Part shown: positions 4,201 through 30,292 of the stretch, in pieces
How the letters are laid out: every line of letters begins with the position of its first letter
Position numbering within the stretch: position 1 is the first letter of the stretch
Origin: Candidatus Rifleibacteriota bacterium
Lineage (GTDB): Bacteria; Muiribacteriota; Ozemobacteria; Ozemobacterales; Ozemobacteraceae
Length of the DNA stretch: 37,054 nucleotides
NCBI GenBank assembly: GCA_012517355.1
Contig: JAAYVD010000028.1
Location: 1 to 37,054, forward strand
Reading direction: 5' to 3'
Notes under the pieces: model-generated
The model's database searches: none
What the model was told of the DNA's origin: nothing
Seen by the model: only the letters and a program-made list of their open reading frames with translations
Made by a program: the position numbers and the translations under genes

Positions 4201-5946
4201 GCCGAGCGCATCTGCCGCGAGATCGGCCTCAAATCAGGGCTGCAGCGCACCCTCGAACACCTCGCCATGGTCCTCAAGGCCCGCGGCGACCTCGACGGGG
4301 CCCTCGCCCTGCTCAAGGAGCAGGAGCGCCTCTGCCGCCAGCTCGGCCTCAAGATGGGCCTCCAGGCCTCGATGGGCCACCAGGCCCACATCCTCTACTT
4401 CCGCGGCGACGTGGAAGGCGCCATGACCCTGTTCCGCGACCAGGAACGCATCTGCCGCGACCTCGGCCTGCGCGACCGTCTGCAGCAGGCCCTCGGCGGC
4501 CAGGCGGTCATCTTCCGGGCCCGCGGCGACTGGACCCGCGCCTTGCTGCTCCTCGAGGAACAGGAGAAGATCTGCCTCGAAATGGGCCTCAAGGACGGCC
4601 TGCAGATCTCCCTCTACAACCAGGGCATCATCCGCCTCGTGCGCGGCGACCTCGACGGGGCCATGACCATGTTCAAGAAGCAGGAGGCCATCTGCCGCCA
4701 GGCAGGCTACCGCGAGGGGCTGCAGGCCAGCTTCGGCAGCCAGGCCGTCATCCACCGCAACCGCGGCGACATGCTGCGCGCCATGGCCCTGTTCCAGGAA
4801 CAGGAGAAGATCTGCCGTGAATCCGGCTACAAGGAGGGGTTGCAGGTCTCCCTGTGCGGCCAGGCCGCCATCCTGCAGGCCTCCGGCGATTTCGACATCG
4901 CCATGGCCAAGCTGCGGGAAGGCGAACGCATCTGCCGCGAACTGAGCCACAAGGAGGGCCTGCAGCGGGTGTTGTGCAGCCAGTCGCTGATCCTGCGCGC
5001 CCGCGGCGACAACACCGGCGCCATGGCCCTCCTCAAGGAGGTCGAGAAGATCTGCCGCGGCCTCGACTACAAGTCGGGCCTCCAGCGGGCCCTCGAATAC
5101 CAGGCCGCCATCCTGCAGGCCCAGGGCGACCTCGACCAGGCCATGGCCCTCCTCAAGGAACAGGAGGCCATCTGCCGCGAGCTGGGCATCAAGGCCGGCC
5201 TCCAGGCCGCCATCGGCCAGCAGGCCCTGCTCCTCGAGCAGCGGGGCGACCTCGACGGCGCCCTGACCCTGCTCAAGGAACAGGAGCTGATCTGCCGCGA
5301 ACTCGGCCTCAAGGCGGGCCTCGCCCGGGCCATGGCCATGCAGGCCCAGGTCATGGCCCGCAAGTTCGACCGCACCCGCGAAGCCATGGACCTCGTCAAC
5401 GAAGCCTACAAGCTCGCCCGCAGCCACGGCCTGAACACGCTTTCGTCCCAGATCCAGAACGTGCTCAACGCCGTCCAGCCCCCGGGCGGCATTCCGCGCG
5501 GCCGCCTCGAACCCGGCGACTGGAAACGCTTCCAGGCCCAGCTCGCCGAGAAGACCGCCTTCGCCCGCGACCCCGCCGACCCCCGCGCCTCGCTCGAACG
5601 ACTCCACCAGCAGGAACGCCTCTGCCGCGAACTCGACATGCCCACCGAACTGGCCAACAGCCTCGCCGGACAGGCCCTCATCATGCGCGAACTCGGCGAC
5701 GGCGAACGCGCCCTCGAGGTCCTGCGTCAGGAAGAGACCATCTGGCGCCAACAGGGCTCCCGGACCGGCCTGCTCGAATGCCTCGTCAACCAGGCCCTCC
5801 TCCTGGTCCTCGACCTGCACCGCCCCCGCGAAGCCCTCTCCCTGGCCGAGGAGGCCTACCGCCTCGGCGAGAAGCACGACCTCCCCGAACTCCCCCACAC
5901 CGTCCTCGGACAGCTCCTCGACTTCGTCCACACCCAGATCAAGTGA
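1204..5946 (+). CDS. Nephrocystin-3-like STAND NTPase (DUF4062-like / NACHT / TPR array)
   Basis: This is a 1580-residue cytoplasmic signal-transduction NTPase. Residues about 13-150 resemble DUF4062 as in NPHP3/TEP1 proteins (an RLYLSA start, a VLVD strand, then ARCRPFFLGILG), but the usual SST motif is degenerate. An NTPase domain follows with Walker A GPLGRGKSA (about 254-262) and Walker B TVLVLDGVDLW (about 339-349). Next comes a winged-helix-like segment (SRAGLAEEELLSLL) and a His-containing AHQAVAEAVTRRYL. From about residue 740 to 1400 there are roughly 16 TPR-like repeats of exactly 40 residues, then a linker and two more. STAND proteins are inactive until a ligand bound by the repeats triggers NTP-driven oligomerisation; the ligand here is unknown. 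The frame is open upstream to 886, but the ATG at 1204 has the Shine-Dalgarno and promoter. Roles could be regulation, defence or self/non-self sensing. Confidence 0.9.
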   Translation: MTNPPAENNGHHLLQVRLYLSAPGPALSAVRTEIARRVLPLLRRKFARRGMSLVLVDPCAEGDPAPDLPLADRLDEIARCRPFFLGILGPGGGDPAPREVHAALAARHPWLGRFRHRTIGEIEAECAILQAPPGGGGTLFYALGSHPPATAATTALTGREPSQDLPTRLREAGLPFRDGLASPSALGDQVYGDLLRLLEEVAPRLDPGPLHHAGLLQEAFAEARRGCYLANPALFQRLDDFVEHGGDHPLLVTGPLGRGKSALVANWVAHHRRRHPDDLVLTHSFEVSAEAATETFLYRRLLHTLEHRFDLPLSPPLTEESLRQGILEWLYLAVPWGRTVLVLDGVDLWKGEREGTTPEWLTAPLPPGLRLIITGQTDHPLVADLVHRGCTVVTLPPLDRPDRQTLLQMSAEARGLTDLPPRLERLLPEPPCADPLFLNLLLDTLDIFPPAPGDAPRLPLDVSPAYGPADLLDLVLARLDETCLADRPWACRDALTALASSRAGLAEEELLSLLGNGEDPLPTPLWTRLRRHLDPLLLQTPGRWTLAHQAVAEAVTRRYLFSEQHVFAQRERLVTLFRPVDRGPRHLQEYGWQLAAQRSWETLARWLSAPDTFSELVLADHIEATRLWRLLERHSPFRSLEAYARPLLEPERHLAFLPALAAFLRESGLREKALDLDRRFVQYLRGRPIGEESLPALDDLAQNLFRAGDFAEAEPLLLELETRFQATRNWRGLAGCRHHLAIIAHSRGETERAGQLFRDAMRLFSEGGDGFGLERCLGSLGTALYGQGDLPGALATFRRQELVGRSLGRQEGLAAALLGQAMCHRAAGDLDQALTMLAAVETLCRELGSRRTLGTCLNLQAAVHRTRGDLSGAMARFQEAEALFGERQELAGLQVSLGGQASIHRSRGHLDEAARLFGEQERICRMIGSREGLTIALGGQAAILRERGRLADAMEMTRQAEKLCRDLCFREGLQRSLCLQANILRDQGDLDGALALLRDAERICREIGLKSGLQRTLEHLAMVLKARGDLDGALALLKEQERLCRQLGLKMGLQASMGHQAHILYFRGDVEGAMTLFRDQERICRDLGLRDRLQQALGGQAVIFRARGDWTRALLLLEEQEKICLEMGLKDGLQISLYNQGIIRLVRGDLDGAMTMFKKQEAICRQAGYREGLQASFGSQAVIHRNRGDMLRAMALFQEQEKICRESGYKEGLQVSLCGQAAILQASGDFDIAMAKLREGERICRELSHKEGLQRVLCSQSLILRARGDNTGAMALLKEVEKICRGLDYKSGLQRALEYQAAILQAQGDLDQAMALLKEQEAICRELGIKAGLQAAIGQQALLLEQRGDLDGALTLLKEQELICRELGLKAGLARAMAMQAQVMARKFDRTREAMDLVNEAYKLARSHGLNTLSSQIQNVLNAVQPPGGIPRGRLEPGDWKRFQAQLAEKTAFARDPADPRASLERLHQQERLCRELDMPTELANSLAGQALIMRELGDGERALEVLRQEETIWRQQGSRTGLLECLVNQALLLVLDLHRPREALSLAEEAYRLGEKHDLPELPHTVLGQLLDFVHTQIK
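3421..5400 (+). repeat. 120-bp tandem coding repeat (40-residue TPR units)
   Basis: Repeat units start every 120 bp from 3421 (3421, 3541, 3661 and so on to 5221, with a partial unit at 5341), with no indels over about 16 units. Each encodes a variant of QAAILRARGDLDGALALLKE followed by QERICRELGLKEGLQ. Recurrent phrases such as ATCTGCCGC and CGCGGCGACCTCGAC fall at the same place in most units. This is a protein repeat array, not a CRISPR, and is a likely site of copy-number change by recombination. Confidence 0.95.
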
Positions 5947-5978
5947 AGACGGGCGCCATCTGGCCGCTCTTCCGATCT

Positions 5979-6052
5979 GCCCGGCACCATGGCGGAAACA
6001 CCCCGTGGCCGCCCCGGCAGGCGGCGCGGAACGCCGGTGTCGCGCCCCGCAC
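5979..6052 (-). repeat. Dispersed multi-hairpin element, copy R1 (intergenic)
   Basis: A divergent copy of the dispersed element lies between the STAND stop and the next gene. It retains the central arm GCCGCC/GGCGGC (6008-6013 and 6020-6025). On the minus strand its frame reads RDTGVPRRLPGRPRG, matching the peptide of other copies. The match is weaker than for R2 and R4. Confidence 0.6.
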
Positions 6053-6097
6053 AGGAACCCCTCTGGCCGCGTGTTCCCACCAGCCAGGGAGTCCCGG

Positions 6098-10756: not shown

Positions 10757-11021
10757 CTCGCCCGTTCTCCCCCTTCCCCGCTTCCCCTATTCCTCTCCTT
10801 GCCCCTTCCTTCCTCTCTCACTCGCCTTCCCCTCTTCCTCTCCTGGCTCCTTCCGTCCTCTGCCTCCCCGTTTCTCCCTCCTTGTCTATCCCCCCCGGAT
10901 CACGCCCGTCGCCGTCCGCTCCAGAACCAACGCTCGCCCGTTCTCCCCCTTCCCCGCTTCCCCCCCTTCCTCTCCTTGCCCCTTCCTTCCTCTCTCACTC
11001 GCCTTCCCCTCTTCCTCTCCT
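10757..11021. repeat. Pyrimidine-rich spacer with a duplicated segment of about 88 bp
   Basis: The 10636-11082 gap holds no credible gene. After the palindromes it is almost pure C/T on the plus strand. The segment at 10757-10844 recurs at 10933-11021 with two substitutions and one indel. Open frames here encode only Pro/Leu/Ser-rich low-complexity peptides. On the minus strand the tract is purine-rich. Confidence 0.85.
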
Positions 11022-11082
11022 TCCCCCATCCTAGCTTCCTTCCCTTCCCCTCCCCCCTCATCCTCTCCGGCTCCCTTCATTC

Positions 11083-11799: not shown

Positions 11800-11938
11800 G
11801 GTCAAGTCCTCCTGTGGAATCGATTGGGATGGGATGAAAACAGGTCGGCGGCGATACCGCCGGTCACCGGGAAAGGGACGGGTACGGACGGCGACCGGAA
11901 GGGAACGGGCTCCCTCCCGGTCGCGCGACCGGCCCCGA

Positions 11939-12015
11939 CCGACACGATGTCGGCAACACCCCTTTGCCGCCACGGATGGCGGCGCGAAACCCCAGTTTCG
12001 CGCATCGCAAGGGGG
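11939..12015 (-). repeat. Dispersed multi-hairpin element, copy R2 (intergenic)
   Basis: This is a well-preserved intergenic copy. It has CCGACA-CGA-TGTCGG (11939-11953), then outer arms CCCCTTTGC and GCAAGGGGG that enclose GCCGCCA-CGGA-TGGCGGC and GCGCGAAAC-CCCA-GTTTCGCGC. The minus strand stays open in the same frame as the coding copies (RETGVSRRHPWRQRG, then DIVSVG). It lies three bases before the DUF1015 stop codon complement, in the DUF1015-TPR gap. Confidence 0.85.
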
Positions 12016-12018
12016 CGG

Positions 12019-13314: not shown

Positions 13315-13343
13315 ATTCTAAGAACGGTGGCCGGCCTTGTCAA
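13315..13343 (-). promoter_or_regulatory. Consensus promoter of the DUF1015 gene, inside the upstream CDS
   Basis: TTGACA (13338-13343), a 17-bp spacer and TAGAAT (13315-13320) form a near-perfect sigma-70 promoter. It lies wholly within the last codons of the SpoIIE gene; the -10 contains that gene's TAG stop and the -35 overlaps its Val-Asp-Lys codons. The leader would be about 50 nt. Confidence 0.85.
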
Positions 13344-16300
13344 CCCTCCCGGAACCCGCCGACCCGCGCGCCACGGCATCCGGAGCCTGTCCCCGAGCCC
13401 CCCCCTGCCTGCCGACCGGCGGGTCTCCCCCGGCCCCCGGCTTCCCCGCTCCGTCACCCGGCGTCGGCGGACCGGCGGCCGGCTCCCCCGGTACCCCCGG
13501 CTCGAAGTGGGCCACCACGAAGGTCACGTCGTCGTCCCAGTCCCAGCGGGCCGTCGCCTGGTGCACGAACCGGAACATCCGTTCGACCGCCCCGTCGAAG
13601 CCGGCCGCCGCCTCTCCCGACAACGCCTTCTCCAGACGGGGATACCCGATCGACGTGCCGTCGGGCCCCATCGCCTCGACCGCCCCGTCGGTGAACAGCA
13701 CCATGGACCCGCCCGGTCCCACCACCCGGTGCACCTCCTCCACCCGGCTGTTCTTGACGGTGGCCAGCGGCATGCTGGGCAGCAGGAAGCTTTCGCATCC
13801 GCCCCCCGGCGACACCACCAGCACCGGCGTATGTCCGGCATTGGCCACCTGGAACTCCCCGGTGCGGGTGTCGATGCGTATCACCTCGCACGTCATCATC
13901 CGCACACGCCGCAGGAACTCCACGAGATGGCGGTTGAGCCCCGTCAGCAACCCCTTGGGCTCCCGCTCCCCGAACGACAACAGGATCCGGAGACCGGTGC
14001 CGACCATCACCATGACCAGGGCGGCCGCCAGCCCGTGCCCCGACACGTCCCCAATGCAGACATAGACCACGCCTTCGTCTTCCGGGTCCGGGATGATGTC
14101 GAAATAGTCCCCCCCGACCTGCTCCATCATGATCGACCGCCCCTGGATCGACACCCGCTCCCGCCGGAACACCCCCTGCGGCAGGAGCCGGTTCTGCAGG
14201 TGCCCGGCCACGTCGAGTTCCTTCAGGCTCTCCAAAACCAGGGTGAACAGGACCGCCAGCTCCCCCCATTCCCCGATCGCGTTGCGCACCGGAACTGGCG
14301 GCGCCCCCGGCCGCCCCAGCTGCCGGGCGAACACCATCAGGTCGAGGATCGGCTCGAACAAAAACCGCCGCAGAACCTGGGCGAAAAAGCCCAGCACCAC
14401 GGCGAGGCCCAGCAGAATGCCTCCCAGCGAGCGCCGCCGGCCGATCTCCGCGGTCGCCAATTCGCCCACGGGCCGGGCCGCGCCCAGTACATACAGCCCG
14501 AACTCGTCGCTGGTCCGCACGAAAACCCAGCGCCAGGTGCCGTCGGGGAATGCCGCCACCAACTTCCGGCTCTGGCCCCCCATGCGCAGGTCCCCCGCCA
14601 GCCGCTTCACTCCCCGCGGCAAGGCCACCGTCGAAAGGTCCGGCACCTCGAGGGCACGGGCGAGCAGGAACAGATCCACCCCCGCCCCCCGCGGCGCGGT
14701 TCCCCTGCCCGCGACCGAAACGAGTTCGGCCATTCCCCCCGGCCGCCACGGCCGGCGGCCCGAACCACCCGTTTTGCCCATGGCAAGGCCGTCCTGCCAC
14801 ATCTGCCGGATCAACCGCCACGCCGCCGGGAACAGCAGGTCCGTGTCCTTCCAGTGCAGCATCACGAACAGGCCCGCCCGCCCGTCCGGCCCCGGCAGCA
14901 CCTCCAGCATCTCCAGCACCCGGTCCCGCAACGAGCCGATGGCCGCGATCCTGCCCAGATGGTCCCAGATGTAGCCCATCACGTCCTCGGGATCCATCCC
15001 CCCCATCGACGAGGCGAAGGCCCCCACGTCGACTTTCGGCCCCCCCGCCACACCCCCGCCCCACCCGTGTTCTTCGTCCCACCGCCGGCAGATCTGCCGG
15101 GCGATCGCCCCCATCCCCTTCCGCAACATGGCCTCGGATGAAGGCACCGGTCGCTCCCGCCGGTCCGCGCGCAGAAACCCCTCCAGCCATCCCCGCCATC
15201 GCGGATCGGCTGCCGACCAGGGCGCACCCATCAACCCCAGGTAGTAGGCGTTGGTGGAGGCGCCGTCTTCGAGGAACCGGGCCAGGACCGGCACCCGACG
15301 GGCCGGAGGCAACCCGGCCACGAACACGAACACCGACCGGTATCCCTGGTGGCTGGGCAGCAACTGCTCCCCTCCCGGGGTGACCAGGTGGGCGATGGCG
15401 ACGTGATATCTTCGCTCGAGGTCGTCCAGACCCCACAACATCGCTTCGGAAGCCACTTCGGGCCGGTATCGGAACCGCCTCAGGACCTCCCGCATCCGGG
15501 CTTCCTGCCGCCTGACCTCCGCCCGGAAGACCGCCTCGGGACGCTCGGTCTCCTGGGCGAGTCCCCGGAACGTCTCCGGGATCTCCCCCGCCACCCACGC
15601 ATCGATCTCCAGCTCCCCGACCAGCAGGACCCCGAACAAGGGAAGCCCCACCGCCGGAAGCAGATGCAGACCCACGCGGCGGCTGATGGTGGCCACCCAG
15701 ACGGTCTCCCCCGCCACCAGCGCCCGGTAGGTCCCCACCAGCCAGGCCAGGCTGCAGCAGAACCAACCCAGATACCCGATCGGGCCCCACAGGGCCAGGG
15801 GCCAGGGAAGCCGCCCACTGACCCCGAGATCGCCCGCCGCATCGCGCACCACCAGGGTCAGGCCCACCGTCCCTCCCGCGCGCCAGACCCGTTCCTCCGG
15901 CGGCCGCTCCCCCTCAACGTCCTCGCCGGCCGCCGCCCTTCGAAACCGGGCCCGGAACAGGCGGTCCGGCCCCCGGAACGCCTTCATGCCCCGCCGCACC
16001 ACTCCCAGCCAGGCCCGGTCGAGGACCACCGGCCGCATCGCCGACGGATCCGCCAACACCAGGTAGCCGTCGGCCGCCGCCACGGAGCCCGGCGCGCCCC
16101 CCGTTTCCCCCATCCAAGGGACGCCGTCTGCCGGGCCTGGCCCGACAGGTCGGCCGCCGATGCGGCCCCAGGCGCACCAGACGCCATTCCGGCCGAGCGG
16201 CAGCCGGAACCAGGCATGTTCCTTCCGCGCCTCCCCGAAAACCGACAGCGGCAGGTCACCCCACCCGGCGAACCGGACCACCCCCTCCGCCTGGGCGATC

Positions 16301-16878
16301 TCCCCCTGCCGACCGGTGACCAGAACCCGTACCAGGTCGGCCGGGGTCAACACCCCGGACGCAGGCGCCGCCCAGGTGCCTTCCTGCATTCTCCCGGCGA
16401 GGAACGGGACGGGCCCCGCCGCCCCGGCAACCCTCGCGGTCTCCAACCACCGCGGCCCCATCCCCGCCCGGTCGAGGGCACGCCAGACCTGTTGCCGCCA
16501 GGAGTCCAGGCCAAGGCCGCGGGCCCGGCCGCGCAGGTGCGCCCAGACCACCCCCCGCTTGCGATCCTCCCGGCCCAGCTGCCGGGCAACCTCGGCCTGG
16601 TACCGGAGCCGCTCGCGCAGCAGGTCCAACCCGGTCCGCTCCCGGCCCGCGGCGGCCTGCCGCAAACCCACCAGCAGCAGGAAGGCGAGCGGGGCCCAGG
16701 CGCACAGGGCCAACAACCACCACCCGCCCAACCCCAGGCCGCCCGCGCCCGCGCCGCCCGACGTCAGGTTGGCCACCGGCGGAACGGTTGGCCCGGGGGA
16801 ATGGCTCGCCACGGGCGTTTCCCCCCGCCCCTCGGGGCGGCCAGAGGCCCCTGCCGCCGTGGAGTCGATCGGGATCAT
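13318..16878 (-). CDS. Membrane-anchored SpoIIE/PP2C phosphatase A
   Basis: This is a 1186-residue sensor phosphatase. A membrane segment at about 48-68 is followed by a large sensor region, further hydrophobic segments near 365-390 and 405-425, another long extracytoplasmic-like region, and a last membrane segment near 820-840. The C-terminal PP2C domain (about 895-1150) has VGGDYFD (near 919), GDVSGHG (near 942), NAGH, FTDG (near 1061) and WDDDVTF (near 1112), so all metal-binding acidic residues are present. Such enzymes dephosphorylate Ser/Thr-phosphorylated anti-sigma antagonists or similar partners; no partner is encoded here. The start overlaps the stop of phosphatase B (ATGA, 16875-16878), so translation is coupled. 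Residues about 696-721 derive from the dispersed hairpin element. Confidence 0.93.
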   Translation of the reverse strand: MIPIDSTAAGASGRPEGRGETPVASHSPGPTVPPVANLTSGGAGAGGLGLGGWWLLALCAWAPLAFLLLVGLRQAAAGRERTGLDLLRERLRYQAEVARQLGREDRKRGVVWAHLRGRARGLGLDSWRQQVWRALDRAGMGPRWLETARVAGAAGPVPFLAGRMQEGTWAAPASGVLTPADLVRVLVTGRQGEIAQAEGVVRFAGWGDLPLSVFGEARKEHAWFRLPLGRNGVWCAWGRIGGRPVGPGPADGVPWMGETGGAPGSVAAADGYLVLADPSAMRPVVLDRAWLGVVRRGMKAFRGPDRLFRARFRRAAAGEDVEGERPPEERVWRAGGTVGLTLVVRDAAGDLGVSGRLPWPLALWGPIGYLGWFCCSLAWLVGTYRALVAGETVWVATISRRVGLHLLPAVGLPLFGVLLVGELEIDAWVAGEIPETFRGLAQETERPEAVFRAEVRRQEARMREVLRRFRYRPEVASEAMLWGLDDLERRYHVAIAHLVTPGGEQLLPSHQGYRSVFVFVAGLPPARRVPVLARFLEDGASTNAYYLGLMGAPWSAADPRWRGWLEGFLRADRRERPVPSSEAMLRKGMGAIARQICRRWDEEHGWGGGVAGGPKVDVGAFASSMGGMDPEDVMGYIWDHLGRIAAIGSLRDRVLEMLEVLPGPDGRAGLFVMLHWKDTDLLFPAAWRLIRQMWQDGLAMGKTGGSGRRPWRPGGMAELVSVAGRGTAPRGAGVDLFLLARALEVPDLSTVALPRGVKRLAGDLRMGGQSRKLVAAFPDGTWRWVFVRTSDEFGLYVLGAARPVGELATAEIGRRRSLGGILLGLAVVLGFFAQVLRRFLFEPILDLMVFARQLGRPGAPPVPVRNAIGEWGELAVLFTLVLESLKELDVAGHLQNRLLPQGVFRRERVSIQGRSIMMEQVGGDYFDIIPDPEDEGVVYVCIGDVSGHGLAAALVMVMVGTGLRILLSFGEREPKGLLTGLNRHLVEFLRRVRMMTCEVIRIDTRTGEFQVANAGHTPVLVVSPGGGCESFLLPSMPLATVKNSRVEEVHRVVGPGGSMVLFTDGAVEAMGPDGTSIGYPRLEKALSGEAAAGFDGAVERMFRFVHQATARWDWDDDVTFVVAHFEPGVPGEPAAGPPTPGDGAGKPGAGGDPPVGRQGGARGQAPDAVARGSAGSGRVDKAGHRS
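14715..14790 (-). repeat. Dispersed multi-hairpin element, copy R3 (inside phosphatase A)
   Basis: This in-frame copy lies within the second sensor region of phosphatase A. Arms are CCGAA-N5-TTCGG (14715-14729) and GGCCGCC/GGCGGCC (14741-14747 and 14754-14760). The encoded peptide GKTGGSGRRPWRPGG, then ELVSVA, matches the other copies in frame. Confidence 0.7.
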
Positions 16879-19800
16879 GCCCCACCACCCTTCATGGTCA
16901 GGACCAGCAGGGTCCGGTCATCCTCCTGACCGCCGCCAGGCTTGGCGCTGATCCGCCCGGCCAGGGTCCGGACGAAGGCGTCGGTGTCGGGCTGATAACT
17001 GGCTGCCACCAGGCCGGCAAACACCTCGTAGGCATCCTGCCCGGCTTCCACCGGCAACCCCTTGATCCATCCGTTGGAAAAAAAGACCACGACGTCACCC
17101 GGCTGCAGATCGCGACTCTGGCTGGCGTAGTCCCTCGCGGTCGGACTGCCCAGGGGGGGCTGGGAACCCTGCCACCAGGCCGGTCGCCCGTCGCGCAGGT
17201 GCAGGGGCCAGCAGCCGCCGGCGTTCGCCCACGACAGCCGGCGCCCGGCTTCCTCCCAGTTGGCCACCAGCAGCGCGAAATGCCGGCCCTTCCCCCCGAC
17301 CCTGGCCAGGTGCCCGTTCAGACAACCCAGCATGCCCGCGGGATCCCGTTCCCGCTCCCCCACCAGGCGCAGCCCCAGCTTCGCCCTGGCTCCCAGCAGG
17401 GAGGCATCGACCCCGCTCCCCGCAACGTCTCCCAGGCACAGCAGCAACCGGCCCGGCTCCGGCCGCCAGACCTCGCTGAAATCGCCACCCAACAGGCCGG
17501 CCGCCTGGAAGCGGCCCTCCACCCGCACCGCCCCCGCCTCCATCGTCCCCTCGAACACCAGCGTCTTCTGCACCGGCACCGCCGAAACGATCTCCGACAG
17601 GGTGTGGGCCGACCGCTGCAACCCCGCCGCCAACGCCCCGAACTCGTCGGGCTCCGCCACCGGCCCCATCTCGAACTCCCGCCGCCGCAACCGCTCCAGG
17701 GCGCGCTCCAGCCCGCCCAGCCGCCGCGCAAAGAAACCCGCCAGCAGGTAGGCCGCCCCCACCGCGAACCCCAACAGAACCAGCAGGACCCCGACCGCCG
17801 TCGCCCGGAGCCGCTCCGCTCCTGCCAGAACCGGCCCGAGGGGGACCGCCCCCACCAGCAGCCGTTCCGTCAGCCGCTGGCAGGGCAGGACCGTGACCAG
17901 CCAGGACCGCCCCCCACCACTCTCCACCACCCCGTCCGCCGCCTGCTGCGAGCGGTTGGCCCGGTCGCACAAGGCCTGCAGCCGCGTATCCAGCAGCAAC
18001 CGCTCCGGCCGGCTCCACATCGGACCGCCCGCGCCCATCCCCACCAGCCCGACCCGGAACCCGCCCACCGGCCCGCCATCCGCCATCGGCGCGGCCCCCC
18101 GCCGCCGCGCCCCGATCGCCCGCAGGTACACCTGCTTGAGACTGGTCGACCCCACCACCATCGCCACCAGATACCGCCGCCCCCCCGATCCCACTGATCC
18201 GGCGTCGGCCATGCCCCCCGGCCGCGACGGCTGGCCGGCCGGAACGGTCGTGCCCCGCCCCGCGCGGGCGCCGACCGACACGATGTCGGAAGTGCCCCTT
18301 TGCCGCCACGGATGGCGGCGCGAAACGCGCGTTTCGCGCAGCGCAAAGGGGCCCTCCCCCAGCGGTTGGATGAGGACATGGAAATCCCGTCCGAATCCAC
18401 CGAGCGACGCGATCCGCCCCATCTGCCGCGACATCGCCCGCACCTGCCCCTGGGCGAAGGCGTAGTCGACCGCCGGGTCCCCCGTCCGCTCCGGCGTCGG
18501 GAACCCCTGCCGCAGACGCTCGATGTTCCGCACCAGGGCCCCCACCAGCGCCCGGTCCCGCTCCGGGTTCCGCAGCTTCCCCGTCGACCCCCACTCCGCC
18601 GTCCCCGTGGCGTCGAAGACCCAGGCGGCACTCACCACGTCGTCCAGCCGCAACCCCGGCCAGGAGCTTCCCACCAGGGTTTCCGCCAGACCGGCCGGGT
18701 GCGCCGCCCCGCGCGCCACCGCCCGTTCGATCGCCCGCAGCATCTCCTCATACCCATGGTCCACTCCCGCCAACCGGCTCTCCACCTGCCGGTGGGCCTG
18801 CCACCGCATCCGCTCACCGGCCTCCCGGCCGAACCGGTAGGCGCCCGTCGCGAACACGGCCATCGCGGGCAGCGTCACCCCCAGGATGCCCATCCCCACC
18901 ACCGTCTGCAGAGAGACCCGGCCCAGCGTGCCCCGCCACCAGCTCCACCCCAGCCCCAGAACGCCCAGGGCCAGCACTCCCCATCCCGCCCGCTCACCCC
19001 AGGTCAGCAGCGCGAGACGACGGCCGAGGTCAGGGGGAACGCCACCCTGGCGGCGAAGGGCCGCCACCCCCCGCTCCCCCAGCGCCTGAACCTCGATCTC
19101 CTCCCCGGGATGCCGGCCCTCCAGGACCCGCCGAACCGTCTCCACCGCCCCGCGCACCAGCCCGGGATCATGCTCCCGCACCAACCGGTCCAGGTCGTCC
19201 CCCGCGAACCAGTCCAGGGAATGGGAAGCCCGGATCCGTCCGCGGAACTCCTGCAACCGCCGGTCGAACAGCGCCTTCTCCCCGGCTTCGTCCCGCTTGA
19301 CCAGCAACAGAACCTGCCTGACCCCGCCCGGTCCCCCGCCCCCCGTTGCCACCCCGGCCGCCCTCCCCACCGTGCACCAGGCGGCATGCGAATACCGCCC
19401 CCGCCCCTGCAGCGGCACCATCGTCCAGGGGGCCATCGCCACGTCCTCCAGCACCTTGGGATGCTGGAAGAACTGGCGCGACAACCGGTTCAGCCACGCC
19501 CCCGTCTCCCCCTTCCGCGAGGCCACCAGCCCCCGACGGACCTGTTCCGACAAGGCCCGGAACTCACCCGGGAAACCCGGGACCATCACCCGCCGCCCCG
19601 CCCCGTCGAAGAACAAGACCAGGAAAGGATGGTCACCGCTCCGCAACCGGGTGAAGGCCGTCGCCAGAGGCATCCCCCGCCGGTACCGGTCGGCGGCCCG
19701 CCGCAGCAGGTCGCCCCCGTAGGTGGCAGGGAAGGCCGTCCGCCGCAGGTTCAGCAGCATCAGGGTCAGGTCCTCCCGCTCCCGCGCCCGCCAGTCTTCG

Positions 19801-19928
19801 AACCACCCGGTGGCCACCGACCGGCACCACCCGGCCAGCCCCAGCATCGGCAGCACGAGGAACAGCAGCAGGCCGACCGCCAGGTGCCCCGCGGCCCACC
19901 GGTCCAGTCCCCGGGCCTCCCCGGTCAT
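16875..19928 (-). CDS. SpoIIE/PP2C-like protein B with degraded active site
   Basis: This 1017-residue protein has the same plan as phosphatase A: a membrane segment (about 14-36), a periplasmic region, a hydrophobic pair near 310-370, a second sensor region, a membrane segment near 695-720, a HAMP-like linker (FEMGPVAEPDEFGALAAG), and a PP2C-like domain. In that domain LGGDFSEV and EDDRTLL are kept, but GDVxGHG reads GDVAGSG, NAGH reads NAGG, and the metal-binding TDG reads SNG (Asp to Asn). It is therefore probably inactive or altered and may regulate its partner A, whose start overlaps its stop by 4 bp. The ATG at 19928 follows a G-rich ribosome-binding stretch; a TTG at 19988 is a longer alternative. 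Residues about 525-578 hold two copies of the dispersed element. Confidence 0.88.
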   Translation of the reverse strand: MTGEARGLDRWAAGHLAVGLLLFLVLPMLGLAGWCRSVATGWFEDWRAREREDLTLMLLNLRRTAFPATYGGDLLRRAADRYRRGMPLATAFTRLRSGDHPFLVLFFDGAGRRVMVPGFPGEFRALSEQVRRGLVASRKGETGAWLNRLSRQFFQHPKVLEDVAMAPWTMVPLQGRGRYSHAAWCTVGRAAGVATGGGGPGGVRQVLLLVKRDEAGEKALFDRRLQEFRGRIRASHSLDWFAGDDLDRLVREHDPGLVRGAVETVRRVLEGRHPGEEIEVQALGERGVAALRRQGGVPPDLGRRLALLTWGERAGWGVLALGVLGLGWSWWRGTLGRVSLQTVVGMGILGVTLPAMAVFATGAYRFGREAGERMRWQAHRQVESRLAGVDHGYEEMLRAIERAVARGAAHPAGLAETLVGSSWPGLRLDDVVSAAWVFDATGTAEWGSTGKLRNPERDRALVGALVRNIERLRQGFPTPERTGDPAVDYAFAQGQVRAMSRQMGRIASLGGFGRDFHVLIQPLGEGPFALRETRVSRRHPWRQRGTSDIVSVGARAGRGTTVPAGQPSRPGGMADAGSVGSGGRRYLVAMVVGSTSLKQVYLRAIGARRRGAAPMADGGPVGGFRVGLVGMGAGGPMWSRPERLLLDTRLQALCDRANRSQQAADGVVESGGGRSWLVTVLPCQRLTERLLVGAVPLGPVLAGAERLRATAVGVLLVLLGFAVGAAYLLAGFFARRLGGLERALERLRRREFEMGPVAEPDEFGALAAGLQRSAHTLSEIVSAVPVQKTLVFEGTMEAGAVRVEGRFQAAGLLGGDFSEVWRPEPGRLLLCLGDVAGSGVDASLLGARAKLGLRLVGERERDPAGMLGCLNGHLARVGGKGRHFALLVANWEEAGRRLSWANAGGCWPLHLRDGRPAWWQGSQPPLGSPTARDYASQSRDLQPGDVVVFFSNGWIKGLPVEAGQDAYEVFAGLVAASYQPDTDAFVRTLAGRISAKPGGGQEDDRTLLVLTMKGGGA
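18195..18262 (-). repeat. Dispersed element, divergent copy R5 (inside phosphatase B)
   Basis: A second, degenerate copy lies next to R4. It encodes GTTVPAGQPSRPGG then GSVG in the same frame as the other copies. Compared with R4 its hairpin arms are mostly lost, so it is probably older. Confidence 0.5.
18275..18351 (-). repeat. Dispersed multi-hairpin element, copy R4 (inside phosphatase B)
   Basis: This is the best-preserved copy. CCGACA-CGA-TGTCGG (18275-18289) is followed by outer arms CCCCTTTGC (18295-18303) and GCAAAGGGG (18343-18351). These enclose GCCGCCA-CGGA-TGGCGGC (18302-18319) and the 22-bp near-perfect palindrome with arms GCGCGAAACG/CGTTTCGCGC (18318-18339). It is read in frame as RETRVSRRHPWRQRG then DIVSVG, inside the second sensor region of phosphatase B. 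Confidence 0.9.
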
Positions 19929-20277
19929 CGCCCGCCCCCCCCCTTCACCCGGGCCCCGGCATGGTTCCACGGCCGCCTCTGTCGCCAATGGCCATGAAAT
20001 CGGTCGTTCCCCGTGATGCCGGCGGGATCGTCACCATGGATGAGGCAACGCAGGCGCGGCCGGGACCCCGGTCCCCACCGCCCACCAGGCTGCCGGCGGC
20101 TTCGGCCTGCCGGCGGCGGCAGCGCCCGGGCCGCCCTGGATTCCCGACACGATCGGCGCGGTGACCCGCCCGGAATGACCGGCCCCACGTGAAGATTCCC
20201 TCCAATCCATGGCCGGCCCCACCGCCCACCCGAACCGGGCGCATTCTTCGCAACTGCGGTATCATGGGTACCATAGT
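19929..20277. other. Divergent intergenic region between two phosphatase operons
   Basis: This 349-bp gap separates the B-A and C-D phosphatase gene pairs. It has a -10-like TATCAT for the plus-strand pair near its right end. I see no clear promoter for the minus-strand pair and no credible small gene. CCGACACGATCGG near 20135 recalls the first hairpin of the dispersed element, but the rest of the element is absent. Confidence 0.6.
20260..20265 (+). promoter_or_regulatory. Putative -10 of phosphatase operon C-D
   Basis: TATCAT lies 12 bp before the ATG at 20278, the same hexamer as at 6122. No good -35 and no Shine-Dalgarno are seen, so a leader of only about 5 nt is expected. Confidence 0.35.
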
Positions 20278-26443: not shown

Positions 26444-27877
26444 CTACGCCTCCCCGGTCGCGGATCCGGATGGGGCGGCAGGGTCGGCGGCCGCCGGCTG
26501 GACGGCCATTCCCCGCTCCTCGGGAGTGCCCGGCACCAGCGTGTCCCAAAAGGCCGCGCACAGCCCGGCCACCGCCATGGGGGTCTTCAACAACGCCCAC
26601 AGGATCTGCCCGGCCAGCCCGACCGCGAAAAAGGCCTCCTTCTGCCCCTCGACCCAGCCGGGCAGGCCCATCGCCATCAGGAAGGAGAACCCGACGATCA
26701 TCACGTTCCGCTGGCTGCCCATGTCGGCACGCATCAGGATCTGGATGCCCAGCGCCCCGATGATGCCGAACAGCGCGATGTAGGCCCCACCGATGATCGG
26801 CGCCGGAATGGTCGCCACCAGCGCCCCCAGCTTCCCCACGCAACTGAGCAGGATCAGCACCACCGCGCCGGTCCGCACCACGTACACCGAGGCCACCCCC
26901 GTCAACCCGATCAGGCCGATGTTCTCGGTGTAGGAGGTCGTGCCCACCGCGCCCAGGCACCCGGCCAGGACGCAACCCACCCCCTCCGCCCCGATGCCGC
27001 GGCTGATCATCTGCGGGGTCGGGTCGGCCAAACCCGCCGCATACGAGCAGGAATGGTAGTCCCCTATCGACTCGATCATCACCGCGAAAAACCCCGCCAG
27101 CATCGCTCCGAACGCCAGGAAACTGAACTTCGGCACGCCCCAGGGGAAGATCCCCGGGAACCGGAGCCACGGCGCTTCTTCCACCGGGGCCAGCGAGATG
27201 TACGCCGGGTGGCCCGCCTCCAGCCAGCCCGCCTGCGAGGCGGCCAGGCAGAGGAGATAGGTCGCCACGATCGACAGCAACACCGCGAAGATGTTCAGGT
27301 GCTTCTGCCGGATGAACAACGTGAACACGAAGATGCCCCCCACCACCAGCAGCGACACCCACCAGCACTTGGCGGCGTTCATCTCGACCGCCACCTTGGC
27401 CAGCGAGAACCCGATCGCCATGATCGTCGGCCCGATCACCACCGGGGTGACGAACCGCCGCACCAGGCCGACGATCCCGCTGTACCCGACGATCGCCATC
27501 ACCACGCCCCCGGCGATCAGCCCGCCGCCGATGTACGGCATGATCACCCCGGGATCGCCGCCGCTCTCCGCCGTCTTGTAGGCCGCGATCACCGTCAGCA
27601 CCGGCGGGATGAAGCTGAAACTCGACCCCTGCACGATCGGAAGCCCCGACCCCAGGGCCGGATGCGTCTGGATGAGGGTGGCCACCCCCATCGCCAGGTA
27701 GACGCAGCTGATGAACAGCGCGATCTGGCCCGTGCTCATGCCCATCGCCGGCCCGAAGATCAGCGGCACCAGCGTGGTCGCCCCGAACAGCGTCAGCACA
27801 TGCTGACACCCCGCCAGCACCATGATGGGAAACGGCGGCTGGTCCTGCCACCCGTACACGATCTGCCTGCGACTCAT
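26444..27877 (-). CDS. NCS2-family nucleobase:cation symporter (uracil/xanthine permease)
   Basis: This 477-residue inner-membrane transporter has about 12-14 hydrophobic segments. Family signatures are the QH motif in the first membrane segment (AGCQHVLTLFGATTLVP), the helix start ALGSGLPIVQGSSFSF, VVIGPTIMAIGFSL, IESIGDYHSCS, and the substrate-site block TSYTENIGLIGLTGVAS. NCS2/NAT members import uracil, xanthine, uric acid or similar bases with a proton or sodium. The ENIG context resembles both uracil and purine transporters, so substrate is left open. The C terminus is Ala/Pro-rich. The ATG at 27877 follows AGGAGG by 5 bp and an extended -10 by 28 bp. It is transcribed alone, convergent with phosphatase D. 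Confidence 0.93.
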   Translation of the reverse strand: MSRRQIVYGWQDQPPFPIMVLAGCQHVLTLFGATTLVPLIFGPAMGMSTGQIALFISCVYLAMGVATLIQTHPALGSGLPIVQGSSFSFIPPVLTVIAAYKTAESGGDPGVIMPYIGGGLIAGGVVMAIVGYSGIVGLVRRFVTPVVIGPTIMAIGFSLAKVAVEMNAAKCWWVSLLVVGGIFVFTLFIRQKHLNIFAVLLSIVATYLLCLAASQAGWLEAGHPAYISLAPVEEAPWLRFPGIFPWGVPKFSFLAFGAMLAGFFAVMIESIGDYHSCSYAAGLADPTPQMISRGIGAEGVGCVLAGCLGAVGTTSYTENIGLIGLTGVASVYVVRTGAVVLILLSCVGKLGALVATIPAPIIGGAYIALFGIIGALGIQILMRADMGSQRNVMIVGFSFLMAMGLPGWVEGQKEAFFAVGLAGQILWALLKTPMAVAGLCAAFWDTLVPGTPEERGMAVQPAAADPAAPSGSATGEA

Positions 27878-27917: not shown

Positions 27918-28002
27918 CCGGCCGACACCATGCCGGAAGGGCCACCCTTCGCTGCCACCGAGGGCGGCACGCCACGCCCGTTCCGCCCACCGCAAGCGGG
28001 GC
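27918..28002 (-). repeat. Dispersed multi-hairpin element, copy R6 (intergenic)
   Basis: This copy sits between the permease promoter and the 244-residue gene. The first arm has changed to CCGGC/GCCGG (27918-27922 and 27932-27936), still able to pair. The region corresponding to the other arms is recognisable (CCCTTCGCTGCCACC, then GGGCGGCACGCC) but imperfect. Confidence 0.65.
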
Positions 28003-28017
28003 CGCCCGCCACCGCCC

Positions 28018-28752
28018 CTACCAGCGCCGCGGAAACCCCATCGCCTGCCACAACCGCCAGGCCGCCGGGCTGCGCACCATCGGGTCGGGGTGCGCCCGCA
28101 CCTTCTCCCAGGCGTTGTGGGCCCACACCACGTCGCGGGCGATGTCGTCGCGCACGTCGGTGAAAAGATCCCGCAGCATCCCCGCCTGCCGGCCCAGGAT
28201 CCGCAGCCGCTGCTCCTTGGACCGGCCGCGCAACCGGTAGTCGCGCAGGATCTCCTGCCCCCAGTCGGCCGACGAGAACCCCGCCGGCAGCCCCTCGTCG
28301 AGCCGGTCCTCGTCGCGTTGCGGCCAGTCGCCCTTCAACATCCCCATCGCCGCCTTCACGCCGGCCAGGTTCATCCGCACCAGCAGCAGGTCGGGCCGCG
28401 CCACCCGGCCGATCTCCTGGCACCGCGACCAGTGGGGAAAAGACTCCCCGACCGGAGGCGGCTGCAGGATCCGCCCGGTCCTCTCGAGATCCTTCAGGGC
28501 GTTCTCCATGTCCTTTTGCACCGACCGGACCAGCACCTGGAGGTCGGAAGCCACCCACACCGGCTCGGGAAAGCCCCCCCAACGGATCCGGAACCCCCAA
28601 TCGGCCGCTCCTGCGCCAACTCCGCCGAGCAGCACCCAGCCAAGAAGGGCGGCGATCAGGGCCGCCGCCCCTCCCCCCCTTCCGACCGGCACGAGGTCGG
28701 ACACACCCCCGTGCCGCCACGGAAGGTGGCGCGAAACGCAGGTTTCGCCCAT
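28018..28752 (-). CDS. Exported protein of unknown function with element-derived N terminus
   Basis: This 244-residue protein has a hydrophobic signal-like segment at about 29-50 (AAALIAALLGWVLLGGVGAG), preceded by 28 residues that come from dispersed-element copy R7 (GETCVSRHLPWRHGG). The mature part is mostly helical and charged (VLVRSVQKDMENALKDLERT, RDVVWAHNAWEKVRAHPDPM), with no family I recognise. The only ATG is inside the element; GTG codons at residues 17 and 21 are alternatives and also lie in the element. It follows the TPR gene by 31 bp and is the last gene of the FecR-TPR operon, so a role in the same envelope process is inferred. Confidence 0.65.
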   Translation of the reverse strand: MGETCVSRHLPWRHGGVSDLVPVGRGGGAAALIAALLGWVLLGGVGAGAADWGFRIRWGGFPEPVWVASDLQVLVRSVQKDMENALKDLERTGRILQPPPVGESFPHWSRCQEIGRVARPDLLLVRMNLAGVKAAMGMLKGDWPQRDEDRLDEGLPAGFSSADWGQEILRDYRLRGRSKEQRLRILGRQAGMLRDLFTDVRDDIARDVVWAHNAWEKVRAHPDPMVRSPAAWRLWQAMGFPRRW

Positions 28753-28765
28753 TGCCGGAGGGCCG
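28682..28765 (-). repeat. Dispersed multi-hairpin element, copy R7 (5' end of a gene)
   Basis: Arms CCGACC/GGTCGG (28682-28687 and 28695-28700) show a compensated change relative to CCGACA/TGTCGG in R2 and R4. GCGAAAC-GCAG-GTTTCGC lies at 28731-28748. The ATG of the 244-residue gene (28750-28752) is within the element. Confidence 0.8.
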
Positions 28766-28783
28766 GCCTTCAGCCGACCGTCC

Positions 28784-30292
28784 TCATTTGTAGACGTTCG
28801 ACAACCCCCGGTTCAGTTCGGCCTGGTGCCGCTTGACCGCGTCCGCGGAATCCGCCGTGCCCTGGCGGGGCCGGTCCGCATGCCCGGTGCCCGGGGTGTA
28901 CCCCGGCTCGGGCGGGGCGATGTTCCGCCGCGGGTCATCCGGCGGGTCGTCCTCGAGTTCCTCCTCCTCGTCCTCGCCAACCTCCTCCTCGCCCGATTCG
29001 AGCGAATCATCCTGCGTCTGGGGGTCGGACACCGCCGGCTGGGCGGTCTGGGTGGCGATGGCGGGATTCTCCTCGAGGGTCCGCTTGTAGATCGCCGCCA
29101 GTTTCTGGTTGGCCAATTCCTGCAGCGGGTTCGGCTCGAAGGCCACCCGGCGGTAATACCCCGCCGCGTCGACCAGCTTCCCGGCCCGCTCCATCACCCC
29201 ACCCAGTTCGAGCTGGACCAGCAGGTCCTTGGGGTTCTTCAGCACCGCCGCATCCAGGACCTCGATGGCCTTGTCGGCCTTCCCGGTGCATTCGAGACAG
29301 GTGGCGAACCGGATGGCCAGCGACACGTTGGCATCGTCCTTGTCATAGAAGCCCTGGAACAGGTCCGCCGCCTTCTGATAGCTGCCGGTCTGGAAGTAAC
29401 TCTCGGCCAGGAACATGCCGGCATACTCGTTTTCCGGTTCCCTCTTGAGAAGCGGCTCGAGCACCTTGATGGCCTCGGGGTACCGGCCCAACTGGTAGGC
29501 CAGCCGGCCCTCCTGCAAAGGAGCCAACGGGCTCCGCCCCTGGGATTTCTTCCAGGCGTCCGCCGCGGCCTGCGCGGCATCGTCCTTCTTCCACTCCAGG
29601 TACAGCTCGATGAGCGCCCGCGCCGGCTCGGGATCGTCGGGAAATTCCCGGACCAGCGTCTTCAGGATTCCTTCCGCCTGCTCCCGCTCCATCAGGTCGA
29701 TGTGCCGGAAGGCCTTCCGCAGCAGGGCCTGCTTGCGTTCCAGGCCCTTCGTCTCGATCCCGTTCCGCTTCATCAGGAACTCCGCCACCTTCCAGAGCTT
29801 CGCCCCCAGCGGCGTGTCCTTCAACTTGACGAACAGGCCGGTCCCTTCCGAGACCCGCTCCTGGACGATGCAGTATTCGCCCTTGACGAAGGTCAGCAGG
29901 TTCGACTTCGGATGCTTGTTCCGGACCTGGTCGAGTTGCGTGCCCGCGCGATCCATGTGGTACACACACCGGTCGATCAGCGACAGGAAATACAGCGCGC
30001 GGGTATCGTTCGGATCCTTCTTCCGCCGTTCGGAAAAATACATGAACGCCGGGGCCAGGTCGTGCTTGCGCGCTTCGGCGCTCAGCGATGGCTCGGCCAG
30101 CAGAATGAACTTGTAATAGGTGGTGACCCCTTCCTGGAACGCCTTGTTCTTCATCAACTCGAGGGCGCGCCCATACAGCGGATGCGGCCCCGCCGCGAAG
30201 GCCGGGAAAGCCGCCGCCCAGACGGCCAGACACGCGATCAGCACCCAACGGGCCAGGGAACGCCCGGTTCGTCCGGTCAGACCGTCCATCAT
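28784..30292 (-). CDS. Exported TPR-repeat protein
   Basis: This 502-residue protein has a Sec signal peptide (VLIACLAVWAAAFPAFA, cleavage near residue 34), then TPR-like helical repeats over about 40-400, for example EGRLAYQLGRYPEAIKVLEP, GMFLAESYFQTGSYQKAADL and LVQLELGGVMERAGKLVDAA. A very acidic, Pro-rich tail (about 425-470, SGEEEVGEDEEEELEDDP) follows. It should act as a periplasmic scaffold. The ATG at 30292 overlaps the FecR stop (ATGA) and has a GGAGGGAGGA ribosome-binding site; a second ATG follows at once. It is the middle gene of a FecR-TPR-unknown operon. Confidence 0.85.
   Translation of the reverse strand: MMDGLTGRTGRSLARWVLIACLAVWAAAFPAFAAGPHPLYGRALELMKNKAFQEGVTTYYKFILLAEPSLSAEARKHDLAPAFMYFSERRKKDPNDTRALYFLSLIDRCVYHMDRAGTQLDQVRNKHPKSNLLTFVKGEYCIVQERVSEGTGLFVKLKDTPLGAKLWKVAEFLMKRNGIETKGLERKQALLRKAFRHIDLMEREQAEGILKTLVREFPDDPEPARALIELYLEWKKDDAAQAAADAWKKSQGRSPLAPLQEGRLAYQLGRYPEAIKVLEPLLKREPENEYAGMFLAESYFQTGSYQKAADLFQGFYDKDDANVSLAIRFATCLECTGKADKAIEVLDAAVLKNPKDLLVQLELGGVMERAGKLVDAAGYYRRVAFEPNPLQELANQKLAAIYKRTLEENPAIATQTAQPAVSDPQTQDDSLESGEEEVGEDEEEELEDDPPDDPRRNIAPPEPGYTPGTGHADRPRQGTADSADAVKRHQAELNRGLSNVYK

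What the first reader, a model, noticed from the sequence alone, without database searches (positions are those of the whole stretch)
28682..28765. Repeat element supplies the start codon and N-terminal peptide of a gene
The only ATG of the 244-residue exported protein lies inside copy R7, so its first 28 residues come from the element and precede the signal-like helix. The element may have replaced an original start, extending the protein, or the gene may use a GTG or other codon. Either way the element has changed the gene's 5' end.
Basis: partly seen in the sequence, partly recalled or inferred. Interest (0 to 1): 0.7.

Follow-up and report, generated by a model that had tools for sequence, protein, structure and literature searches.

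The report
Mobile repeat inside an export leader
A short, many-copy DNA repeat has landed in frame inside the front end of a bacterial gene for an exported protein, so that every ordinary start codon the gene could use lies in the repeat; the added peptide sits in the throw-away export leader, which probably explains why it is tolerated.

Summary
Observation largely right. An 83-nt structured repeat (window 28682-28764, minus strand) covers the 5' end of the 244-aa ORF 28018-28752 and holds its first ATG. It contributes 23 2/3 codons (not 28). Every ATG, GTG or TTG compatible with an intact export leader (ATG 28752, GTG 28704, GTG 28692) is inside it. Two orthologues (52-61% identical) lack the repeat and have ordinary short signal peptides.

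The family has at least 150 copies in this genome (same family as an Ozemobacteraceae MAG), three diverged matches in one congener, none found in 34 other relatives. Its unit is 81 nt (27 codons), stop-free in all six frames, and it sits in frame in other genes; an ATP-grasp gene carries blocks that orthologues lack.

Best reading: an in-frame 27-residue insertion into the n-region of a cleaved leader, as with Rickettsia palindromic elements, rather than wholesale replacement of the start. Ten of 191 copies sit directly before a hydrophobic leader core with no start codon between, against 1.5% of random points. Which start is used is unresolved: CTG 28773, just outside the repeat, has a well-placed Shine-Dalgarno sequence and may be the relic of the native start. 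New member of a known kind.

The parts
28682..28764 (-). Copy R7 of the 83-nt structured repeat (81-nt unit plus shared GG): outer stem enclosing two hairpins, followed by a third hairpin
28018..28752 (-). 244-aa exported-protein ORF from the repeat's ATG; no Pfam or PHROG match; orthologues in G004 and G010
28750..28752 (-). ATG inside the repeat, first canonical start of the frame; no Shine-Dalgarno sequence at a usable distance (duplex -4.3 kcal/mol, near the genome background)
28702..28704 (-). In-frame GTG (codon 17) inside the repeat
28690..28692 (-). In-frame GTG (codon 21) inside the repeat; GGGGGTG upstream (duplex -12.4) but spacing long; gives an 8-residue n-region
28771..28773 (-). 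In-frame CTG just outside the repeat, at the place of the likely native start
28781..28785 (-). GAGGA, Shine-Dalgarno-like, 7 nt before CTG 28773
28627..28668 (-). Hydrophobic core AAALIAALLGWVLL (residues 29-42); AGA|AD signal-peptidase-like site after residue 49 (by eye)
   Evidence: cleavage site by inspection
28784..30292 (-). Upstream TPR protein gene; stop codon 31 nt before ATG 28752
26444..27859 (-). Downstream permease gene (Pfam Xan_ur_permease), start outside the repeat
27918..28003 (-). Weak repeat copy directly downstream of the 244-aa gene (32.5 bits)
18271..18353 (-). Repeat copy in frame inside a SpoIIE-domain ORF (16875-19988); a degenerate tandem neighbour at about 18186-18271
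14711..14793 (-). Diverged repeat copy in frame inside a SpoIIE-domain ORF (13318-16878)
11935..12017 (-). Repeat copy between a DUF1015 gene and a TPR gene
5977..6059 (-). Diverged repeat copy between two plus-strand genes

Best explanation
A high-copy, stop-free palindromic repeat with an 81-nt unit inserted in frame into the n-region of the signal peptide of a gene for an exported protein, a few codons after the native start. The insertion adds 27 residues ahead of the hydrophobic core. The core and the likely signal-peptidase site are downstream, so the added peptide is removed on export and the mature protein is unchanged; this is why the insertion is tolerated. Because the repeat carries its own ATG and GTGs in that frame, the native start was free to decay: the codon at the right distance from the Shine-Dalgarno sequence now reads CTG. 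Shown: position, frame, lack of the repeat in two orthologues, absence of any canonical start outside the repeat that keeps the leader, and recurrence of the same layout at other genes. Inferred: direction (insertion rather than loss in relatives), cleavage, ATG-to-CTG decay, and which start is used (a repeat start about 0.65, CTG about 0.3).
For: Repeat family: at least 150 copies in own genome, the search's scoring cap; unit 81 nt, the spacing of 24 of 41 neighbouring same-strand copies lying under 400 nt apart; ends GG..GG in 109 of 124 copies with GGWC in front; no stop in any of six frames of the consensus. Orthologues lack it: (matches in own, G004 and G010 of 36 genomes), alignment, no repeat hit in their loci. 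Same layout elsewhere: L154 MNRRPAPP-[repeat]-SRALLLLAF and L168 MTPAAPRPGRAPASPGG-[repeat]-LLLAAAVG with an ATG kept upstream in frame and repeat-free orthologues; L177 MLLPSRSPRPSPGPGRD-[repeat, ending G]-FSLVEILVVM, a prepilin-like leader. In-frame insertion against orthologues: the L129 ATP-grasp protein carries repeat blocks absent from G001 and G003. Nine of 10 copies with coding signal on both flanks keep phase. Leader position: 10 of 191 copies against 306 of 20,000 random points. Taking the 81-nt unit out of the window gene leaves CTG AAG GCC GGA AGG..., an 8-residue n-region with net charge +2, like the G004 orthologue's 9 residues.
Against: No empty site at DNA level was found: the two orthologues are 52-61% identical, and the window's flanking genes gave no match in the two orthologue loci, so insertion versus capture of the repeat by rearrangement is not settled. 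The pre-insertion start is a reconstruction. With net 83 nt instead of 81, ATG 28787 (overlapping the upstream stop) would come into frame but meets TGA at 28772-28770. One of 10 coding-flanked copies (L142) breaks phase. ATG 28752 has no good Shine-Dalgarno sequence. In L143 and L117 no clear native start is left close by, so the pattern is not uniform. The leader enrichment rests on a home-made gene caller, and copies are not fully independent.
Confidence: 0.72

Rival explanations
1. The repeat replaced the start: an 83-nt net insertion threw the native ATG (28787, overlapping the upstream TPR gene's stop codon) out of frame, and the gene now depends wholly on the repeat's ATG or GTG.
For: Removing exactly 83 nt would bring ATG 28787 into the gene's frame, and the same arithmetic works for an upstream ATG in L130 (sequences).
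Against: In the window that frame meets a TGA after five codons; ATG 28787 has a poor Shine-Dalgarno score (-3.2); the repeat's tandem spacing is 81 nt; L154, L168 and L177 fit 81; L130 also has an ATG upstream in the present frame.
Confidence: 0.12
2. The gene really starts at CTG 28773 outside the repeat; the repeat then supplies no start at all, only an internal 27-residue insertion (251 aa in all).
For: In frame, GAGGA 7 nt upstream, duplex -8.3 kcal/mol, a value reached by 8.6% of random points and 31% of 226 called ATG starts. It is at the place where the native start is expected.
Against: CTG starts are rare in bacteria (general knowledge, not tested). Three canonical starts follow within 81 nt.
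Confidence: 0.28
3. The repeat did not insert into the gene; the gene was brought here next to an existing repeat copy (repeat copies flank it on both sides) and captured it as its new 5' end.
For: A weak copy lies right after the stop codon (27918-28003). The gene is found in only 3 of 36 genomes, own included, and the flanking window genes gave no match in the two orthologue loci.
Against: The same layout occurs at unrelated genes, three of which keep an upstream ATG in frame, which insertion explains and capture does not.
Confidence: 0.13
4. The 5' extension is an artefact: the gene is non-functional or starts downstream, and the open frame through the repeat is a trivial result of a GC-rich, stop-free sequence.
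For: The repeat is open in all six frames, so an open frame through it is expected by chance; ATG 28752 has no Shine-Dalgarno sequence.
Against: The protein is conserved to 52-61% over about 200 residues with intact frame, both orthologues have a hydrophobic leader core, and no canonical start outside the repeat keeps that core.
Confidence: 0.08

Closest known systems
Rickettsia palindromic elements (RPE)
   Same: Short palindromic multi-copy repeats found in frame inside protein-coding genes; here orthologues without the insert were found for some carriers.
   Different: 83 nt instead of about 105-150 bp, GC-rich, another phylum, more copies, several reading frames used, often in leaders. Sequence homology to RPE families was not tested. 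RPE facts are from passages of PMC10969869 and PMC2229807; the original papers were not read (one look-up failed).
Yersinia YPAL/RU-2 and ERIC repeat-ORF fusions (Delihas)
   Same: Repeat ORFs fused in frame to genes; Yersinia locus YPO1552 is described as an exported protein whose signal peptide is partly formed by the repeat (passage in PMC2229807).
   Different: Those are 127-168 bp elements of enterobacteria; there the fusion is proposed to make a new gene, here an existing gene with repeat-free orthologues was modified.
REP/BIME sequences with RAYT transposase
   Same: Many-copy, hairpin-forming, mostly between genes, tandem units (general knowledge of REPs).
   Different: Larger unit with an outer stem; the one Y1_Tnp gene found in this genome has no copy within 1.5 kb.
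Mycobacterial MIRU repeats
   Same: Small repeats whose reading frame meets neighbouring start and stop codons (recalled only; the listing showed no paper on it).
   Different: No sequence or structural comparison was made.

Membership tests
Rickettsia palindromic elements | Short palindromic, hairpin-forming repeat in many copies | tested here: met
   83 nt, four helices, 93.5% of cells paired, helix 1 with changes on both sides in three pairs; at least 150 copies
Rickettsia palindromic elements | In-frame insertion inside genes whose orthologues lack it | tested here: met
   L129 against G001 and G003; L154 and L168 against relatives
Rickettsia palindromic elements | One conserved peptide frame | tested here: not met
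   Sense frames 0 and 1 and two antisense frames are used in genes
Rickettsia palindromic elements | Sequence homology to a described RPE family | not tested
   No RPE sequence was fetched
MITE | Terminal inverted repeats | tested here: not met
   By inspection of the consensus: ends are GGCCCC... and ...CGGTCGG, not inverted copies; short direct GGWCGG/GGTCGG at the two ends instead
MITE | Target-site duplication seen against an empty site | tested here: inconclusive
   Conserved 5' flank GGWC and shared GG fit a duplicated or preferred target, but no DNA-level empty site was available
REP/RAYT system | Y1 (RAYT) transposase gene flanked by the repeats | tested here: not met
   One Y1_Tnp in the genome, no copy within 1.5 kb
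Known Rfam RNA family | Match above the curated gathering score | tested here: not met
   Four sub-threshold matches only, best 25.5 bits against a gathering score of 80

The most novel reading that the evidence does not exclude
The repeat family persists in coding DNA largely by settling in disposable leader peptides (Sec signal peptides, lipoprotein and prepilin leaders): an 81-nt, stop-free unit with its own start codons can land between a native start and the leader core, keep frame, be removed from the mature protein, and even take over initiation when the native start decays.
Probability: 0.35. Interest if true: 0.62.

Novelty: new member of a known kind. Interest (0 to 1): 0.45.

Why it matters
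It gives a protein-coding palindromic repeat family of the RPE type in an uncultured lineage, at higher copy number than the 44 insertions reported for Rickettsia conorii (passage), with a simple testable reason for where copies in genes are tolerated: the part of the protein that is cut off. It also warns gene callers: starts inside repeats, decayed native starts and inflated N termini may be common in such genomes.

Tried and rejected
Rfam: only sub-threshold matches. Pfam and PHROGs for the 244-aa protein: none. Repeat core pattern in viral contigs: no match. RAYT mobiliser: one Y1_Tnp gene, not next to a copy. Orthologues of the two window SpoIIE proteins in the genus, to measure insert length: none at E 1e-60. 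Synteny of the window gene with its orthologues: none found. Frameshift-replacement model (net 83 nt): considered and set below the 81-nt model. Search listings for repeats in Ozemobacter/Riflebacteria and for palindromic elements with signal peptides gave only the Delihas review as relevant; this is a limited search of an open-licence library, not proof of absence. NCBI taxonomy holds no name beginning 'Candidatus Ozemobacteraceae'.

Full report
Observation. The 244-aa ORF 28018-28752 on the minus strand begins at ATG 28752. A covariance model built from 30 own-genome copies (the window copy among them) places a repeat copy at exactly 28682-28764 (80.7 bits). The repeat therefore contributes 23 codons and two bases of the 24th, not 28 residues. 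The frame is open for only a short distance upstream and has no ATG, GTG or TTG there. In-frame GTGs at 28704 and 28692 are inside the repeat as well; the next, at 28635, would remove the hydrophobic core. So every canonical start that keeps an export leader lies in the repeat. One non-canonical codon, CTG 28773, lies just outside it with GAGGA 7 nt upstream.

The repeat. The 30 aligned copies are 83 nt long with 92% mean column identity. The proposed fold is an outer stem enclosing two hairpins, plus a third hairpin; 93.5% of cells pair, and three pairs of the outer stem show changes on both sides (the number of such pairs is not above the shuffled control, the number of such cells is). The window copy folds better than all 200 shuffles (z -3.46), though into a somewhat different minimum-energy shape. 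Ends are GG..GG in 109 of 124 copies, the four bases in front are mostly GGWC, and 24 of 41 neighbouring same-strand copies under 400 nt apart are spaced 81 nt, so the unit is 81 nt, 27 codons. The consensus has no stop in any of the six frames. The own genome has at least 150 copies (150 candidates were scored and all matched). Among 36 genomes searched, only the own genome and G002, a congener, have matches at E 1e-4 or better, three in G002, of which two are 60 and 62 of 83 identical to the consensus; the search scored at most 127 candidates per genome, so weak copies elsewhere may be missed. Named hosts of the two orthologues are a Candidatus Ozemobacteraceae MAG (JAGOCE010000090.1) and bacterium CG2_30_54_10; the kinship table puts both genomes in the window genome's family.

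The gene. The protein has no Pfam or PHROG match. Orthologues were found in 2 of 35 other genomes (G004, G010), 56% and 48% identical over the whole alignment. Both lack the repeat and have hydrophobic cores after 9 and 18 residues (the G010 start was chosen by me). Strong conservation begins after the core. A signal-peptidase-like AGA|AD site follows residue 49 (by eye), so repeat residues would be in the removed leader.

Other genes. I took 100 stretches around copies, found 202 copies of at least 70 nt in them and the window (218 hits in all, 16 shorter ones dropped) and called genes with a simple codon-usage script, which starts genes too late. By that caller 154 of 202 copies are intergenic, 21 lie inside a gene on the same strand, 14 inside on the opposite strand and 13 partly overlap. 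Orthologue searches and inspection of 5' ends show that L154 and L168 keep an ATG upstream of an in-frame copy, while relatives have short leaders without it; L130 is ambiguous and L143 has lost a clear native start. In L177 the copy sits between an upstream ATG and a prepilin-like G|FSLVEILVVM. In L129 an ATP-grasp protein (Pfam) carries repeat-derived blocks that G001 and G003 lack; the clean one measures 26 residues by alignment to G001, 27 by the repeat. Two SpoIIE-domain ORFs in the window carry copies in frame. Of ten copies with coding signal on both sides (lowest threshold tried), nine keep phase and L142 does not.

Leader position. Using one script for both, 10 of 191 copies (202 less 11 too near a stretch end) sit before a hydrophobic core in an open, called gene with no canonical start between, against 306 of 20,000 random points (binomial tail 8e-4). 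40 of 202 copies have their midpoint in a called gene, against 17,209 of 20,000 random points. Copies are thus depleted in gene bodies but not in leaders. The copies were chosen by search score, tandem copies are not independent and the caller is crude, so this is a lead, not a measured effect.

Which start. Called ATG starts in these stretches have stronger anti-Shine-Dalgarno pairing than random points (-6.17 against -3.84 kcal/mol on average, 226 starts). CTG 28773 scores -8.3 (8.6% of random points and 31% of called starts do as well), ATG 28752 -4.3, GTG 28704 -4.8 and GTG 28692 -12.4 with long spacing. Taking out an 81-nt unit gives CTG AAG GCC GGA AGG, an 8-residue n-region of charge +2, close to the G004 orthologue's 9 residues. 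Since CTG is one base from each canonical start, decay of the native start after insertion is the simplest account, with CTG initiation as rival.

Placement. In mechanism this works like Rickettsia palindromic elements and other repeat-ORF fusions, for which a signal-peptide case (YPO1552) has been described (passages). It is not filed as an RPE: more than one frame is used and homology was not tested. I rate it a new member of a known kind.

Noticed in passing
window 16875-19988 (-) and 13318-16878 (-): Two SpoIIE-domain ORFs carry repeat-derived peptides in frame in mid-protein (GPFALRETRVSRRHPWRQRGTSDIVSVG and a diverged GLAMGKTGGSGRRPWRPGGMAELVSVAG); no orthologue of either at E 1e-60 in the two congeners.
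   Followed up: partly
L177, repeat 2501-2583: A prepilin-like protein whose leader contains a repeat copy; the repeat's last codon supplies the glycine before FSLVEILVVM, the expected prepilin peptidase site.
   Followed up: partly
L129 3298-3773: An ATP-grasp gene with repeat blocks at two places in its frame, absent in G001 and G003 orthologues.
   Followed up: yes
window 27918-28003: A weak repeat copy right after the stop of the 244-aa gene, so that the gene is flanked by copies in the same orientation.
   Followed up: no
window repeat copies, the six above 30 bits: All six clear copies in the window are on the minus strand whatever the strand of the neighbouring genes.
   Followed up: no
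window 3561-5878: A long ORF with about 18 diverged copies of a 120-nt (40-residue) repeat.
   Followed up: no
window 10769-11031: C-rich direct repeat (86 nt, 86% identical, 177 nt apart) of low complexity.
   Followed up: no
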